DNA of 18,497 bases, from assembly GCA_002730485.1 (NCBI GenBank), contig PCAH01000192.1, forward strand, positions 1-18,497, given 5' to 3'. Made by a program: the position numbers and the translations under genes. The stretch comes from Dehalococcoidia bacterium. Its GTDB lineage: Bacteria; Chloroflexota; Dehalococcoidia; UBA3495. The stretch's first letter is position 1; each line of letters opens with the position of its first letter. The notes under the pieces were generated by a model. It did no database searches. It saw only the letters and a program-made list of their open reading frames with translations, and was not told the origin of the DNA. This document shows, in pieces, positions 256-18,497 of this stretch.

Positions 256-726
256 CTATCTCTGGCTAAAGAACTCCACTTCGAACCTGAGGGTGGCGTT
301 CGGGGGAATCACTCCTCCGGCGCCACCAGCACCATAAGCTAGCTCGGGAGGCATGATCAACTCCACCTTGCCACCGACGTTCATGGTTGCCACACCCTCT
401 TCCCAGCCTTTGATAACCCGTCCGGCGCCCAGTGGGAACTCAAATTGTTGACCCCGGTCCACTGAGCTATCGAACTTGGTCCCGTCCATCAACCATCCTG
501 TGTAATGGACCGATACCGTCTTTCCGACTTCAGCCTTTTCTCCGGTGCCAACCACCAGTGTCTTAATCTGCAGTCCGGAAGCTGTGGTAACTATCTCTTC
601 TGCCATGTCTACCTCTGTATCAATCTCTGAATTAATATTTGCTGTAGTACTTGAATCCGAATCGGAAGACGACCCGCACGCAACTCCAAATATCGCCAAA
701 AACGCCACGATCAAAAGCCAGCGCAT
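256..726 (-). CDS. FKBP-type peptidyl-prolyl cis-trans isomerase, predicted lipoprotein
   Basis: 156 residues. Residues 1-17 form a lipoprotein signal: basic start, hydrophobic core, and a lipobox-like GVAC with Cys17, followed by a Ser/Asp/Thr-rich linker (about 18-45). The rest is one FKBP domain with the hallmark stretches VHYTGWLMDGTKFDSS, FPLGAGRVIKGWEEGV and IPPNATLRFEVEF. FKBPs speed proline isomerisation; this one should be anchored outside the membrane and help fold exported proteins. The start ATG is preceded by GGAGG nine bases upstream on the minus strand. It is divergent from the rhodanese gene. The lipobox is not perfect at -3 (Gly), but the Cys and charged linker support lipidation. 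Domain call very sure; lipid anchor likely. Confidence 0.92.
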   Translation of the reverse strand: MRWLLIVAFLAIFGVACGSSSDSDSSTTANINSEIDTEVDMAEEIVTTASGLQIKTLVVGTGEKAEVGKTVSVHYTGWLMDGTKFDSSVDRGQQFEFPLGAGRVIKGWEEGVATMNVGGKVELIMPPELAYGAGGAGGVIPPNATLRFEVEFFSQR

Positions 727-874: not shown

Positions 875-1258
875 ATGACCGATGATTTCAGACAGCGGGT
901 GGAAGCTGCCAAGGGCAAGACAACACCCGTAAGCGCTGTGGAAAGCAAGAAGCAACTTGACGAGAAGCCCGAGATACTACTGATTGAGACGCGACTCAAG
1001 GAGAACGTTCCTCTGAGCGAGCAGGTCGATAATACGATCTTTATCTCCGTGGAAGAATTGGACGCAGCCGCAGAGGACCGCTCCAAGCTGGACCCGCGTT
1101 TGTCAGACCCCAACGTACAGATCATCACAACTTGAAGACTTGGTAATAGGGCAGCCGTTGGCGCCCAAATACTTCAAGAGATTGGATTCGATAACGTGAC
1201 CTACATGGCAGACGGGATGGAAGGCTGGAAAGAAGCCGGATTCGAAACCAAAGAATAA
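875..1258 (+). CDS. Rhodanese-like protein with in-frame TGA at the catalytic Cys (candidate selenoprotein)
   Basis: A plain reading gives an 86-residue protein ending at TGA 1133-1135. In the same frame the sequence stays open for 40 more codons to TAA at 1256-1258, giving 127 residues if TGA is decoded. The downstream part is a textbook rhodanese end: RLGNRAAVGAQIL, then GFDNVTYMADGMEGWKEAG. Rhodaneses carry their catalytic Cys in CRxGxR; here the residues are TGA-R-L-G-N-R, so TGA replaces exactly that Cys codon (residue 87). The upstream part gives the domain's front strands (EILLIETR near residue 34, VQIITT just before the loop), though the usual HIPGA motif is not evident. ATG 875 has GGAGG eight bases upstream, preferred over TTG 854. 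A SECIS-like hairpin follows the TGA. Rhodaneses move sulfane sulfur as an enzyme persulfide; a selenium version would change reactivity. The alternatives are a TGC/TGT to TGA nonsense mutation or a base error. No selA/B/C/D is in the window. Confidence 0.8.
1149..1166 (+). promoter_or_regulatory. SECIS-like hairpin downstream of the in-frame TGA
   Basis: GGGC (1149-1152) pairs with GCCC (1163-1166); A1153 is a single 5' bulge; GCC (1154-1156) pairs with GGC (1160-1162); the loop is GUU (1157-1159). The loop begins 21 nt after the TGA. Known bacterial SECIS elements, such as that of E. coli fdhF, have a one-base bulge on the 5' side, a short upper stem of about 3 bp and a loop containing GU, roughly 16-37 nt after UGA. 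The bulged base here is A, not the usual U, and the loop is small. Confidence 0.55.
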
Positions 1259-1303: not shown

Positions 1304-2026
1304 ATGGCTGAGAGAGTCTGGGATAAGTTCTTATCGGAGCAGGACAAGGCTCACGTGGCGTTGGGGGAAAACAAGCAGGTGGGGTTCGGTGAAAGACCGG
1401 CCCTATTGTTGATTGACCTCTACCGCTGGGTGTTTGGCGACAAACCTCAGCCGATCATGGAAGCCACCAAAGAATGGCCGTCGAGCTGTGGTCTGGCAGC
1501 CTGGGACGCTATCCCGGCGCTGCAGACGCTGCTGGCAGCCGCTAGAAACGCGGGCATACCGGTGGTGCATGCCACCGGCCGCGAAGACGACGGACTGGCC
1601 GGCTGGAGCGTGGGTCGCGAGATCTACGGCAACTCTGACCGCAGCCCCGAGGCAGTCGAACGGCGCAACCGCCGCTTTGACATCATCGATGAGGTCGCAC
1701 CCATCGACGGTGAACCGGTCATCCGTAAGAGCTCACCCAGCGCCTTTTGGGGCACGCCACTGATGGGGCACCTGAACGCCCTAGGCGTGGACACCATAAT
1801 TGCCGTGGGTGAGTCCACCAGCGGTTGTGTCCGGGCCAGCGTATTGGATGGCTGCACCAGTCGTTTCCGCATGATTGTCTGCGAAGAGGGTGTGTTCGAC
1901 CGGCACGAGGCCGCCCACGCCATAAATCTTTTCGACATGAACCAGAAATACGCCGATGTCTTACCTTTGGCAGATGTACTGGAGTACCTGGGAGAGGTGG
2001 GAGCCAAACGGGCTTCTGGAGCCTAG
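1304..2026 (+). CDS. Isochorismatase-family cysteine hydrolase (N-carbamoylsarcosine amidase / maleamate amidohydrolase-like)
   Basis: 240 residues. The cysteine hydrolase triad is visible: Asp38 in LLIDLYRWVFGD, Lys142 in IRKSSPSAF and Cys175 in GESTSGCVRASVLDG. The Ser/Thr before the Cys belongs to the usual cis-peptide turn. The longer N-terminal part (residues 1-30, KFLSEQDKAHVALG) and the loop after Asp38 resemble the N-carbamoylsarcosine amidase, maleamate amidohydrolase and ureidoacrylate-type branch rather than true isochorismatases. Members hydrolyse an amide or carbamoyl bond through a Cys thioester in the cytosol. ATG 1304 follows a good purine-rich site (AGGTGGTGA). It lies 45 bases after the rhodanese on the same strand and may share its transcript. 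Substrate not determined. Confidence 0.85.
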   Translation: MAERVWDKFLSEQDKAHVALGENKQVGFGERPALLLIDLYRWVFGDKPQPIMEATKEWPSSCGLAAWDAIPALQTLLAAARNAGIPVVHATGREDDGLAGWSVGREIYGNSDRSPEAVERRNRRFDIIDEVAPIDGEPVIRKSSPSAFWGTPLMGHLNALGVDTIIAVGESTSGCVRASVLDGCTSRFRMIVCEEGVFDRHEAAHAINLFDMNQKYADVLPLADVLEYLGEVGAKRASGA

Positions 2027-3601: not shown

Positions 3602-3637
3602 CCTACGTCTGGGTTTGGTCTCTGGTCTGGCCTTTCA

Positions 3638-3730
3638 GTCATTCCGGCGAAGGTCGGAATCCAGGACGTTTCTGCGTATCCATGTCTGGTCATTCCGAGC
3701 AATCTGGATTCCCGCCTTCGCGGGAATGAC
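3638..3730. repeat. REP/MITE-like inverted repeat element
   Basis: The left arm 3638-3665 and right arm 3704-3730 are near-complements: GTCATTCCGGCGAAGGTCGG on the left, and TTCGCGGGAATGAC ending the right arm. The right arm contains its own small hairpin (CCCGCCTTCGCGGG). A partial extra copy of the arm start (GTCATTCCGAG) sits at about 3689-3699. No coding capacity. Confidence 0.7.
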
Positions 3731-3768
3731 GGGTGAGGCAGGGTGCCTAGCTAACTGCCACCATCACC

Positions 3769-3862
3769 GCTCGTCCTGAGCCCGTCGAAGGATGCCGATC
3801 AACCGTGTCTCGCATAAGATTTGTATCGGCGCGTGAGTGGTTCGACAGGCTCACCATGAGCG
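3769..3862. repeat. Second inverted repeat pair, left arm shared with 12157-12178
   Basis: The left arm (3769-3794) includes TCGTCCTGAGCCCGTCGAAG; the right arm (3838-3862) has TTCGACAGGCTCACCATGAG, which is its imperfect complement. The 22 bases 3771-3792 recur exactly at 12157-12178. Confidence 0.65.
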
Positions 3863-3888
3863 ATGTCAGAACCCCAAATTGGGCAGGT

Positions 3889-4419
3889 CTAACGGAACCA
3901 GCCCATGCCGCGGAAGAAGCCTCGCAGGTAGGCTATCTGCCCGCCGTGCGCGACAGTGTCCCAGACCATTTGCCCCATGAGCACTGCGATTGTGCGCGGT
4001 TCTGGTACGGTACCCATGACTATCTTGCGTTCCAGTTCTTCGGGAGTCACGTTGGCCAGGAAATTCCTGGTGTGGTTTTTCATCGCCTCGTAGTAGGCAA
4101 GTTGAACGGCCTTGGGCGGCGGAGACCATTGGGCCACCTGCGCTGCGCTCCAACCGACACCACGGTCTTCCTCGTCGGCGGGCATGCCAAATTTCTCGTG
4201 CCACCCTTCGGAGACCCAGGCCTGAGGAAGGTCACGAAAACGGGTGCAGACAAACATGTCTGTCACCCGACTCAAATGCCACAGTATCCAGGCCACAGAG
4301 TTGCACTGGTCCGTGGGTTGACGGGACATCGCAGCCTCATCCAGATCCATGAGGGCTTCGTCGATCATCTCCCAATTCCGTTCCATCGCCAATGACACCG
4401 GATCAACTGGGCTAGCCAT
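3889..4419 (-). CDS. DinB-fold (DUF664/DinB_2-type) putative metal-dependent protein
   Basis: 176 residues predicted as a four-helix bundle of the DinB/YfiT-like superfamily. The metal-binding His pattern fits: His48 in AWILWHLSRVTDMF and His158 in VWDTVAHGGQIAYLRG, with a possible third near His118 (KNHTRNF). The motif 'W.LWHL.R..D' near residue 45 is the usual first helix end of the family. Members are often damage- or stress-induced hydrolases or thiol transferases; the reaction of this one cannot be told. A strong GGAGGAG lies three bases before ATG (4419 on minus). It stands alone; nadC starts upstream on the same strand and ends 51 bases before this gene, so they could share a message. 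Superfamily call sure, function not. Confidence 0.8.
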   Translation of the reverse strand: MASPVDPVSLAMERNWEMIDEALMDLDEAAMSRQPTDQCNSVAWILWHLSRVTDMFVCTRFRDLPQAWVSEGWHEKFGMPADEEDRGVGWSAAQVAQWSPPPKAVQLAYYEAMKNHTRNFLANVTPEELERKIVMGTVPEPRTIAVLMGQMVWDTVAHGGQIAYLRGFFRGMGWFR

Positions 4420-15598: not shown

Positions 15599-16288
15599 AT
15601 GGAAATAAGTCTTGGCAGCCTGAAAAGAGGTGCCGAAGAAGCCCAGGGCACCGCGATAATCATTGACGTTTTCCGGGCCTTTACAACGGCGGCCATCGCC
15701 TTTGACCACGGCGCCAAGGAGATCATCCTGTTTGCCGAGCCTGACAACGCCCTGGCCCTGCACAAAAAGGGCGTTGGTGACTACCTGATGGGGGAGGTCT
15801 CCGGGAAAAAGCCGGACGGCTTCGACTTTGGAAACTCGCCCCACGAGATTTCCGATGTGGACATGACTGGAAAGACGCTGATCCAATCCACCAGAGCCGG
15901 AACCGTGGGCGTGGAGGCCGCAACAAACGCCTCGGAGATATTCCTGGGCTCGTTTGTCGTCGCCCAGGCCACCATAGCCGCCATCAAGAAAGAAGGCCCC
16001 GACCTGGTTTCAATCATTGCCATGGGAGATCAGGGCGTGGTGAGGGCAGACGAAGATGAGCAATGTGGTATCTACCTGAGGAACATCATGGAAGACCGCA
16101 AACCCGACTTCGAAGCGGTGAAGAGTCTGATCCTGACCGGAGGCGCCACTCAGAAGTTCTTTGACCCTGAACAGCCCCAGTACCACCCTGAAGACGTGAC
16201 GCTGGCCCTGCAGGCCGACACGTATTCATTCGCCATGAAGATCAGCCGTGAAGACGGTCTGCTAGTGGCGCGAAGACAGGACGGGTAA
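15599..16288 (+). CDS. 2-phosphosulfolactate phosphatase family protein (ComB-like)
   Basis: 229 residues. ComB signature blocks are present: IIIDVFRAFTTAA (20-32) with Asp23, the GEVSGKKPDGFDFGNSPHE block (65-83), LIQSTRAGTVGVEAA (94-108) and the acidic DEDEQCGIYL (151-160) near the Mg site. ComB removes phosphate from 2-phosphosulfolactate in methanogen coenzyme M synthesis; many bacteria have homologues without a complete CoM pathway, perhaps making sulfolactate. No comA or comC is in the window, so the substrate here is uncertain. ATG 15599 has only a loose site (CCGGAG, ten bases before). It converges on the FAD oxidoreductase with just ten bases between, leaving no room for a terminator. 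Confidence 0.85.
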   Translation: MEISLGSLKRGAEEAQGTAIIIDVFRAFTTAAIAFDHGAKEIILFAEPDNALALHKKGVGDYLMGEVSGKKPDGFDFGNSPHEISDVDMTGKTLIQSTRAGTVGVEAATNASEIFLGSFVVAQATIAAIKKEGPDLVSIIAMGDQGVVRADEDEQCGIYLRNIMEDRKPDFEAVKSLILTGGATQKFFDPEQPQYHPEDVTLALQADTYSFAMKISREDGLLVARRQDG

Positions 16289-17552: not shown

Positions 17553-18377
17553 TTAAAGACCCTTGAACCAGACTTCAAACTGGTCCAGGTGGGAGATTTC
17601 CCCGGTAACCGCCAAACGACCCAGGTGAATCCCGTCTTCGGCGGTCAGTCGTCCGTAGGTGAACAACAGGTATTGCTCTCCAGTTGCAGAGAGTGACAGG
17701 TCCGGATTCCGGGCGGATTCCGGTTTCATTTCAAACGCGTCGCCAGTCACCACTAACTGGGATTTTTCTCCATCAACATCAAAGCCATAGACCACCGGTT
17801 TTGGCAACTTCTCGGAAGGGCGGAAGCACATGCCGAGCCACCTCGGGGTCATATCCACCAGGACCGGCACACAATCTGAGTCGAGCCCTGCGTTCGCCTG
17901 AAATGCCGACCGTATATCAAAGTCGTGGATCGCCAATTCCTGAATCCGCAGTTCCACGTACGCCGCAGCCGTCATGGCCCCCCGGCGGACATGCCAACAG
18001 AGAGTGTCCCAAGAGGTCTTGGCGAACTCATCAAACTCCAAATGCAGCTTCTTGTAGCTGGCGTCGAATGATTCCAGAAAGTGGCCTGCCATCTCATTGC
18101 GGCGATTGATATCCCGCTGGGCATTGGCAGCGGAAAGTTCAGCTGGTTGGGGAGGCACGAATCCGGCGGGCGGGTTGGAATCCCCGCCACGGCCGCGCTC
18201 CATGCTCTCAGCCTGCCGTTCTGCGCCGCCAATCAGATGGCTCACCACGTCCTGGACCTGCCATTCGGCGCAGGCGCTGGGCAGTTCCCACTGTTCCGTT
18301 GTCAAATCGCCCAGGTATTTTCGGATATTGGCCGCCAATCGCTTGGCCACAGCCACGCGATGTTCTATCTCAGTCAT
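17553..18377 (-). CDS. Maleylpyruvate isomerase-family (MDMPI_N, DinB-fold) protein
   Basis: 274 residues from ATG 18377, where AGGAG lies six bases upstream; the frame is open 13 codons further. The first half is a DinB-fold bundle: LPSACAEWQVQDVVSHLIGG with His47 as expected metal ligand, and ELAIHDFDIRSA near residue 160 with a second His. The second half (from about residue 190, VYGFDVDGEKSQLVVTGDAF onwards) resembles the SCP2-like C-terminal domain common in mycothiol-dependent maleylpyruvate isomerase relatives. Actinobacterial members use mycothiol; which low-weight thiol this organism uses is not shown. Reaction unknown. It is read toward the FAD oxidoreductase with a gap of 138 bases. 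Confidence 0.82.
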   Translation of the reverse strand: MTEIEHRVAVAKRLAANIRKYLGDLTTEQWELPSACAEWQVQDVVSHLIGGAERQAESMERGRGGDSNPPAGFVPPQPAELSAANAQRDINRRNEMAGHFLESFDASYKKLHLEFDEFAKTSWDTLCWHVRRGAMTAAAYVELRIQELAIHDFDIRSAFQANAGLDSDCVPVLVDMTPRWLGMCFRPSEKLPKPVVYGFDVDGEKSQLVVTGDAFEMKPESARNPDLSLSATGEQYLLFTYGRLTAEDGIHLGRLAVTGEISHLDQFEVWFKGL

Positions 18378-18497
18378 TTCGTGCTCCTGCCTTGCCGTTT
18401 GCCTGGTCGGTGGCATCGGTATCTACGTTCTTGTACAATTCCAGGCAACCGCGCCCGTGGGCGTATGGCAACCCCTTAAACGAGGAACTTCAGCTAT

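What the first reader, a model, noticed from the sequence alone, without database searches (positions are those of the whole stretch)
875..1258. Rhodanese whose catalytic cysteine codon is TGA: candidate selenocysteine sulfurtransferase
The frame runs from ATG 875 through TGA 1133-1135 to TAA 1256-1258 with no other stop. The 40 codons after the TGA encode the second half of the rhodanese active loop and conserved C-terminus (RLGNRAA, MADGMEGWKEAG). TGA occupies exactly the Cys of CRxGxR. A random nonsense mutation would be unlikely to hit this one codon while leaving both flanks conserved. Annotation tools would truncate it to a meaningless 86-residue protein. I recall rhodanese-type selenoproteins being predicted in marine metagenomes, so this may be a known but untested type, possibly in a new lineage.
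Basis: partly seen in the sequence, partly recalled or inferred. Interest (0 to 1): 0.88.

Follow-up and report, generated by a model that had tools for sequence, protein, structure and literature searches.

The report
Selenium-using rhodanese of SAR202 ocean bacteria
A small sulfur-handling protein of SAR202-type ocean bacteria very probably carries selenocysteine where relatives carry cysteine, because the "stop" codon at its active site and an RNA hairpin right after it are conserved across the group; such selenium-containing rhodaneses were predicted before, but this one is listed in databases as a truncated 86-residue protein.

Summary
Observation confirmed, interpretation supported. Frame 875-1258 has one internal stop, TGA 1133-1135, at the catalytic Cys position of a rhodanese domain. 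All 13 family members recovered with DNA (window plus 12, 44-91% identical) have TGA there. Selection after the TGA equals that before it (pN/pS 0.221 and 0.226, 12 members). A stem-loop fitting the published bacterial SECIS model starts 13 nt after the TGA; its pairing third codon positions are frozen, bulge and loop positions vary. Of eight relatives' genome bins, four have SelA, SelB, tRNA-Sec(UCA) and SelD, a fifth all but a full-length SelB; the other three have partial sets (bin completeness unknown). All eight SelD genes contain a TGA themselves. Two further TGA rhodanese families occur in the same order with other stem-loops; three Cys versions of one lack it. Selenocysteine rhodaneses have been predicted since 2005, and my searches found no biochemical test of one. 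No NCBIfam model matches this subfamily above cut-off, and I found no paper on a SAR202 selenoprotein; identity with published 'UxxG' forms could not be checked. Sulfur transfer is inferred. The window's own genome is not held, so its Sec machinery is inferred from relatives.

The parts
875..1258 (+). Sec-containing single-domain rhodanese gene (family A), 127 residues, no Cys besides the Sec
   Evidence: translation with TGA=U; Pfam Rhodanese 3.3e-9; no other Cys in 12 of 13 family A members, one in divergent L049
861..866 (+). GGGAGG, likely ribosome-binding site 8 nt before ATG 875
   Evidence: read directly
1133..1135 (+). in-frame TGA, codon 87, at the catalytic Cys position of the rhodanese loop (U-R-L-G-N-R)
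   Evidence: conserved in 12 of 12 other family A loci; aligned to Cys of PDB rhodaneses and of Cys homologues L050/L098
1149..1166 (+). SECIS-like upper stem-loop GGGC-A-GCC-GUU-GGC-GCCC: 7 pairs, one bulged base, GUU apical loop at 1157-1159, 21 nt after the TGA
   Evidence: 12 of 12 close members form all 7 pairs; L049 keeps 5 of 7 (read); geometry; fits the bacterial SECIS model quoted in PMC13188914
1139..1143 (+). 5' arm of a possible lower stem (CUUGG)
   Evidence: 93.3% of cells paired with 1174-1178 over 12 members
1174..1178 (+). 3' arm of the possible lower stem (UCAAG)
1304..2026 (+). isochorismatase-fold hydrolase gene 45 bp downstream, possibly co-transcribed; functional link unknown
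   Evidence: Pfam Isochorismatase 2.9e-24; within 100 bp of the rhodanese gene in 8 of 11 related loci, about 1.8-1.9 kb away in 2, not found in L006 (L088, where the gene ends the contig, not counted)
256..726 (-). FKBP-type peptidyl-prolyl isomerase, divergent upstream neighbour
   Evidence: Pfam FKBP_C 1.4e-35; same place in 11 of 11 related loci (L088 not counted)

Best explanation
The gene encodes a 127-residue single-domain rhodanese in which UGA at codon 87 is decoded as selenocysteine. A stem-loop directly after the UGA, inside the coding sequence, recruits SelB with Sec-tRNA (UCA anticodon; made by SelA with selenophosphate from SelD). Shown here: the conserved TGA, selection on both sides of it, the conserved SECIS-like element, and the machinery in close relatives. 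Inferred: that the window's organism has the machinery and makes the protein, and that Sec87, the only Cys/Sec residue, at the start of a six-residue loop (URLGNR), accepts sulfane sulfur as a selenyl-sulfide and passes it to an acceptor, as Cys does in Sud or GlpE. The confidence given is for selenocysteine decoding; for sulfur transfer I would say 0.6.
For: (1) TGA in 13 of 13 family A loci with DNA, at 44-91% protein identity. (2) pN/pS 0.226 before and 0.221 after the TGA over all 66 pairs of 12 members. (3) Stem-loop with 7 of 7 pairs in 12 of 12 close members, loop GUN, spacing 21 nt. (4) The four codons whose third bases pair in the stem are invariant in 12 members (AGG, GCC, GGC, GCC), while the two whose third bases lie in the bulge or loop vary; elsewhere 3 of 30 amino-acid-invariant 4/6-fold codons are invariant (Fisher 4/4 against 3/32, p 0.0006; grouping chosen after seeing the data, on related sequences). 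(5) tRNA-Sec with tca anticodon in 5 of 8 home genomes, full SelA in the same 5, SelB over cut-off in 5 of 8 plus a fragment in G004, SelD over cut-off in 8 of 8, each with one TGA at the CAGU motif. (6) Family B Sec members (8 of 8) form a 6-pair stem of which each of the 3 Cys members breaks at least 3 pairs. (7) Family C forms 7 of 7 pairs in 11 of 11 loci, with one pair changed on both sides in 2 (these loci were picked because they held a TGA). (8) AlphaFold2 model pLDDT 93.4, with rhodanese-domain entries making up most of the best PDB matches.
Against: No protein-level evidence. The window's genome is not held. Three of 8 home bins lack SelA and tRNA-Sec (G002, G003, G007; G003 has SelB and SelD, the other two SelD only), which I read as incomplete bins without proof. 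Family A's stem does not vary in 12 members, so it gives no covariation of its own; divergent L049 keeps only 5 of 7 pairs. tRNA-Sec is in 161 of 197 genomes of the order, so its presence does not discriminate. Five full-length catalogue relatives have R, S, C, W, W at codon 87 (P0002-P0005, P0242), each on a single contig; error and real loss cannot be told apart. Rfam has no match at the element. The window's own fold z-score is only -1.57.
Confidence: 0.92

Rival explanations
1. Pseudogene: a nonsense mutation or sequencing error broke a Cys rhodanese.
For: Gene callers give only an 86-residue hypothetical protein.
Against: Same TGA in 13 of 13 loci, no other stops, pN/pS 0.22 after the stop, frozen stem positions.
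Confidence: 0.01
2. UGA is decoded, but as cysteine (or tryptophan or another residue) by a recoded tRNA rather than as selenocysteine.
For: Cys homologues exist at this position; two singleton proteins have Trp.
Against: Full-length SelA, a tRNA-Sec and TGA-containing SelD in relatives; a stem-loop of SECIS geometry at the UGA; the window's other recognised genes are open without TGA read-through (looked over).
Confidence: 0.03
3. The stop is mostly real: the 86-residue product is functional and read-through is incidental or regulatory (for instance selenium-dependent).
For: Nothing specific; Sec genes can terminate when selenium is scarce (general knowledge).
Against: The 86-residue form ends before the active-site loop and lacks the helix after it, the last strand and the last helix of the model; the downstream part is as constrained as the upstream part.
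Confidence: 0.04
4. A true selenoprotein, but not a sulfurtransferase: Sec serves peroxide reduction, selenium trafficking, or another redox step.
For: Most prokaryotic selenoproteins are thought to be redox proteins (PMC9312934, abstract); no substrate evidence here.
Against: Six-residue loop and single chalcogen residue resemble sulfur-carrying rhodaneses (loop rule recalled); best single-domain PDB sequence match is Sud, a polysulfide-sulfur transferase (1qxn, 35.3 bits). No second Cys in 12 of 13 members to resolve peroxidase-type chemistry.
Confidence: 0.35

Closest known systems
Predicted Sec rhodaneses: rhodanese-related sulfurtransferase COG2897 (Sargasso Sea, PMC1088965), cd01449/COG0607/COG2897 forms (GOS, PMC2398784), rhodanese-like forms 1-5 in PMC13188914 (forms 2 and 4 with UxxG); passages read only
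   Same: Rhodanese-type domain with predicted Sec and a bacterial SECIS; partly marine; UxxG motif shared with forms 2 and 4
   Different: Sequences of those forms could not be fetched here, so identity with form 2 or 4 is not excluded. cd01449/COG2897 are two-domain types by recall; family A is single-domain
Sud polysulfide-sulfur transferase, Wolinella succinogenes (PDB 1qxn)
   Different: Cys, not Sec; periplasmic by recall, while family A from ATG 875 shows no signal peptide by inspection
GlpE thiosulfate sulfurtransferase, E. coli (PDB 1gmx)
   Different: Cys enzyme; NCBIfam GlpE model NF001195 matches far below its cut-off (15.8 of 102 bits)
NF041203 rhodanese_LYCAU (rhodanese-related (seleno)protein) and NF045694 TsoB
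   Same: Rhodanese domain, selenoprotein families
   Different: Matches far below cut-off (18.1 of 115 and 12 of 805 bits); Sec in other motifs (CxU; UxxxxU per PMC13188914 passages)

Membership tests
Rhodanese domain (PF00581) | Profile match over the gathering score | tested here: met
   37.6 bits against 22.2, residues 25-121
Rhodanese domain (PF00581) | Rhodanese fold | tested here: met
Rhodanese sulfurtransferase, classical Cys type | Cys codon at the active-loop nucleophile position | tested here: not met
   TGA there; if read as Sec it is the chemical equivalent
Bacterial selenoprotein gene | In-frame UGA aligned with Cys of homologues | tested here: met
   Cys homologues in family B: L050, L098, L099, and 120 of 120 listed hits of L098
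[quoted passage not shown]
   GUU loop, 7 bp with one bulge, 21 nt, -9.9 kcal/mol; model from PMC13188914 passage
Bacterial selenoprotein gene | SelA, SelB, SelC, SelD in the organism | tested here: inconclusive
   Window genome not held; all four in 4 of 8 relatives' genomes, partial sets in the other 4
Bacterial selenoprotein gene | Selenium incorporated in the protein | not testable with these tools
   needs 75Se labelling or mass spectrometry
Sec rhodanese forms 2/4 (UxxG) of PMC13188914 | UxxG motif in a PF00581 domain | tested here: met
   URLG, Pfam match
Sec rhodanese forms 2/4 (UxxG) of PMC13188914 | Sequence similarity to the representatives MBM9537886.1 or MCY3690685.1 | not testable with these tools
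   no accession look-up for these records
Sulfurtransferase activity | Transfers sulfane sulfur to an acceptor | not testable with these tools
   inferred from fold and loop only

The most novel reading that the evidence does not exclude
One bacterial order recruited selenocysteine several separate times at the same catalytic position of paralogous rhodaneses. Families A, B and C carry stem-loops of different sequence and spacing (21, 25, 23 nt) although the aligned proteins have no gaps there. A selenium-based sulfane-sulfur carrier chemistry would then be a repeated, lineage-specific choice in SAR202-type bacteria.
Probability: 0.3. Interest if true: 0.68.

Novelty: new member of a known kind. 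Interest (0 to 1): 0.52.

Why it matters
It turns a family of 86-residue 'hypothetical proteins', some clusters of which stand for over a hundred contigs (P0007 106, P0076 152, P0092 122), into a credible selenoenzyme of SAR202, a group abundant in the dark ocean (recalled). It links selenium supply to sulfur handling there, and family B offers a natural Sec/Cys comparison for asking what selenium adds to a rhodanese, a question for which I found no biochemical test (searches, an open-licence library).

Tried and rejected
Pseudogene and random nonsense: rejected by conservation. Window genome search and file: not available. Rfam gives only a tRNA in the window and nothing at the element even at E 5. 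The tRNA-Sec search reports 7 of 8 genomes over cut-off, but ARAGORN shows L014 (G007) and L015 (G002) to be tRNA-Ser; I count only the 5 with tca anticodon. Co-occurrence of tRNA-Sec with the gene is uninformative within the order because tRNA-Sec is nearly universal there (161 of 197). An order-wide SelA search was asked three times and not answered. Covariation: family A none. Family C rests on one varying pair (cells changed on both sides 6/500 shuffles as high, but number of such pairs 181/500). Family B's covariation measures on all 11 rows are reached by 48 to 498 of 500 shuffles, only the percentage paired by 0, so the B argument rests on Sec members pairing and Cys members not. B's isolated 17-nt elements fold at -4.8 to -7.7 kcal/mol, 5 of 8 short of the -7.5 limit, and L049's at -5.6. 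Family C loci were chosen because one search flagged a TGA; order-wide rhodanese hits without a stop were mostly not read, so no Cys/Sec ratio is claimed for C. Tree: family A (13 rows, 99/98) and Sec family B (8 rows, 100/96) are each one starred group and 2 changes of the Sec/Cys label are needed; the fork joining Sec B to 19 Cys rows is not starred (89/75), a single origin is not excluded, L049 is a long row, and P0218 looks chimeric (N-terminal part B-like, C-terminal part nearer C). Other selenoproteins in the window: the read-through ORF list was only looked over. The phage, plasmid and E. coli collections were not searched.

Full report
OBSERVATION. Window 875-1258 reads ATG to TAA with one internal stop, TGA at 1133-1135. 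The read-through product is a rhodanese domain spanning both sides of the stop (Pfam 3.3e-9, residues 25-121). Codon 87 aligns with Cys in all four PDB sequences matched (6mxv, 1qxn, 1yt8, 3tp9).

RELATIVES. A scan of GTDB species genomes returned 8 loci, all bins labelled Chloroflexi, SAR202 or Dehalococcoidia, 67-90% identical, all with TGA at the same codon and no other stop. Searching 50 genomes of the same taxonomic family gave 23 matches: 11 genomes with this family (A), all '1 TGA'; one divergent A-like gene in G190 (about 45%, TGA, running off the contig end); and 11 paralogous genes (B), 8 with TGA and 3 with an uninterrupted frame, which reads Cys at the position. In 197 genomes of the order, a third family (C) with TGA at the same place was met; 11 such loci, picked because they held a TGA, were extracted, as was one two-domain gene with TGA in its second domain (L085). 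In the protein catalogue 318 hits were found for the window protein; of the 120 listed, 115 end exactly before the TGA, one (P0070) is shorter, and 4 are longer; the other 198 were not seen. The 4 longer ones carry R, S, C (in a garbled stretch) and W at the place, each on one contig; P0242 (44% identical) carries W. All are residues reachable from TGA by one base change, and such proteins are the only kind a standard gene caller could report full length, so they are an ascertained set. By contrast, all 120 listed relatives of the Cys member L098 (of 1155 found) have Cys there.

SELECTION. Over 12 family A members and all 66 pairs, pN/pS is 0.226 before and 0.221 after the TGA (the codons around a two-codon insertion and the divergent L049 were left out). 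These 12 have no other Cys; L049 has one.

SECIS. Directly after the TGA, 12 of 12 close members can form GGGC-n-GCC-GUn-GGC-GCCC, 7 of 7 pairs, with a lower stem paired in 93.3% of cells. L049 keeps 5 of 7 upper pairs (read). [quoted passage not shown] In codons +5 to +10 the four third bases that pair never vary (AGG, GCC, GGC, GCC; 12 of 12), while the bulge (GCA/GCC) and loop (GTG/GTT/GTC) third bases do; in the rest of the gene 3 of 30 amino-acid-invariant four- or sixfold codons are invariant (p 0.0006, a grouping made after seeing the data, on related sequences). Because the stem is invariant it gives no covariation, and a shuffle test on the window alone is weak (z -1.57). From paralogues: family C forms 7 of 7 pairs in 11 of 11, one pair changed on both sides in 2. 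Family B Sec members (8 of 8) form a 6-pair stem with G-C, G-U and A-U at one pair, and each of the 3 Cys members breaks at least 3 of the 6 pairs.

MACHINERY. In the 8 home genomes: tRNA-Sec with anticodon tca in G001, G004, G005, G006, G008; full SelA in the same five; SelB over cut-off in G001, G003, G005, G006, G008, and a 31-bit C-terminal fragment in G004; SelD over cut-off in 8 of 8, each with one TGA, at a CAGU motif near the N-terminus. So four genomes have all four, one has three and a fragment, one has SelB and SelD, and two have SelD alone. Completeness was not reported. 161 of 197 genomes of the order have tRNA-Sec. The window's own genome is not held; its nearest relative, L001 in G001 (90% identical), has the full set.

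EVOLUTION. In a 51-row tree, family A (13 Sec rows) and Sec family B (8 rows) are separate starred groups; 19 Cys rows join Sec B at an unstarred fork (89/75); 2 label changes are needed and one origin is not excluded. One Cys row near the base, P0218, looks chimeric and carries no weight. The three families' stem-loops sit at different codons (spacing 21, 25, 23 nt) though the proteins align there without gaps. That suggests separate recruitment or complete SECIS turnover.

LITERATURE. Sec rhodaneses were predicted in the Sargasso Sea (3 sequences, COG2897; PMC1088965, passages) and in GOS (several forms; PMC2398784, passages). PMC13188914 (passages) lists five rhodanese forms, in rows after the header 'Predicted with high confidence'. 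PMC9312934 (passages) gives MQG53192.1 for the COG2897 form; PMC5029168 (passages) lists one sulfurtransferase. I could not fetch these records, so family A may coincide with form 2 or 4 (UxxG). Searches for SAR202 with selenoprotein (0 papers) and with selenocysteine (2 papers; of PMC5649159 passages were read, which report SelA/SelB COGs in most sponge symbiont bins; PMC2629846 seen in listing only) found no description of a SAR202 selenoprotein. Dehalococcoidia with selenoprotein gave 7 papers and a four-term search 51 (20 listed), all seen in listing only apart from those named above. NCBIfam has no model that matches above cut-off (8 weak matches).

VERDICT. A conserved selenocysteine-encoding gene of a known kind, in a lineage and subfamily that I could not find described; function inferred.

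Noticed in passing
L051, L052, L100-L105 (Sec); L050, L098, L099 (Cys) (family B): A second Sec rhodanese family (motif TUGGGQMAALGAQ or similar) with 8 TGA and 3 Cys members among 50 genomes; five genomes (G001, G003, G005, G006, G200) carry both A and B.
   Followed up: partly
L053, L054, L064, L077-L084 (family C): A third Sec rhodanese family (AHUGGSGRAALAGQ or similar), 11 loci picked for their TGA, with a 7-pair stem-loop and one compensatory change.
   Followed up: partly
L085 2371-3261: Two-domain rhodanese with TGA in the second domain (TYUQGG), possibly the published COG2897-type selenoprotein.
   Followed up: no
L035-L042: SelD itself contains a TGA in 8 of 8 genomes (HCAGU motif).
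   Followed up: partly
L075 (G006 C27): The tRNA-Sec gene lies about 4 kb from the family B rhodanese gene.
   Followed up: no
window 3889-4419 (-) and 17553-18416 (-): Two DinB/mycothiol-transferase-like proteins (Pfam DinB_2, MST, MDMPI_N); the thiol cofactor of this lineage is not known to me.
   Followed up: no
window 15599-16288 (+): 2-phosphosulfolactate phosphatase-like protein (Pfam 2.1e-38), best known from coenzyme M synthesis (recalled).
   Followed up: no
window 3620-3880: Intergenic stretch with palindromic, repeat-like sequences, seen by eye only.
   Followed up: no
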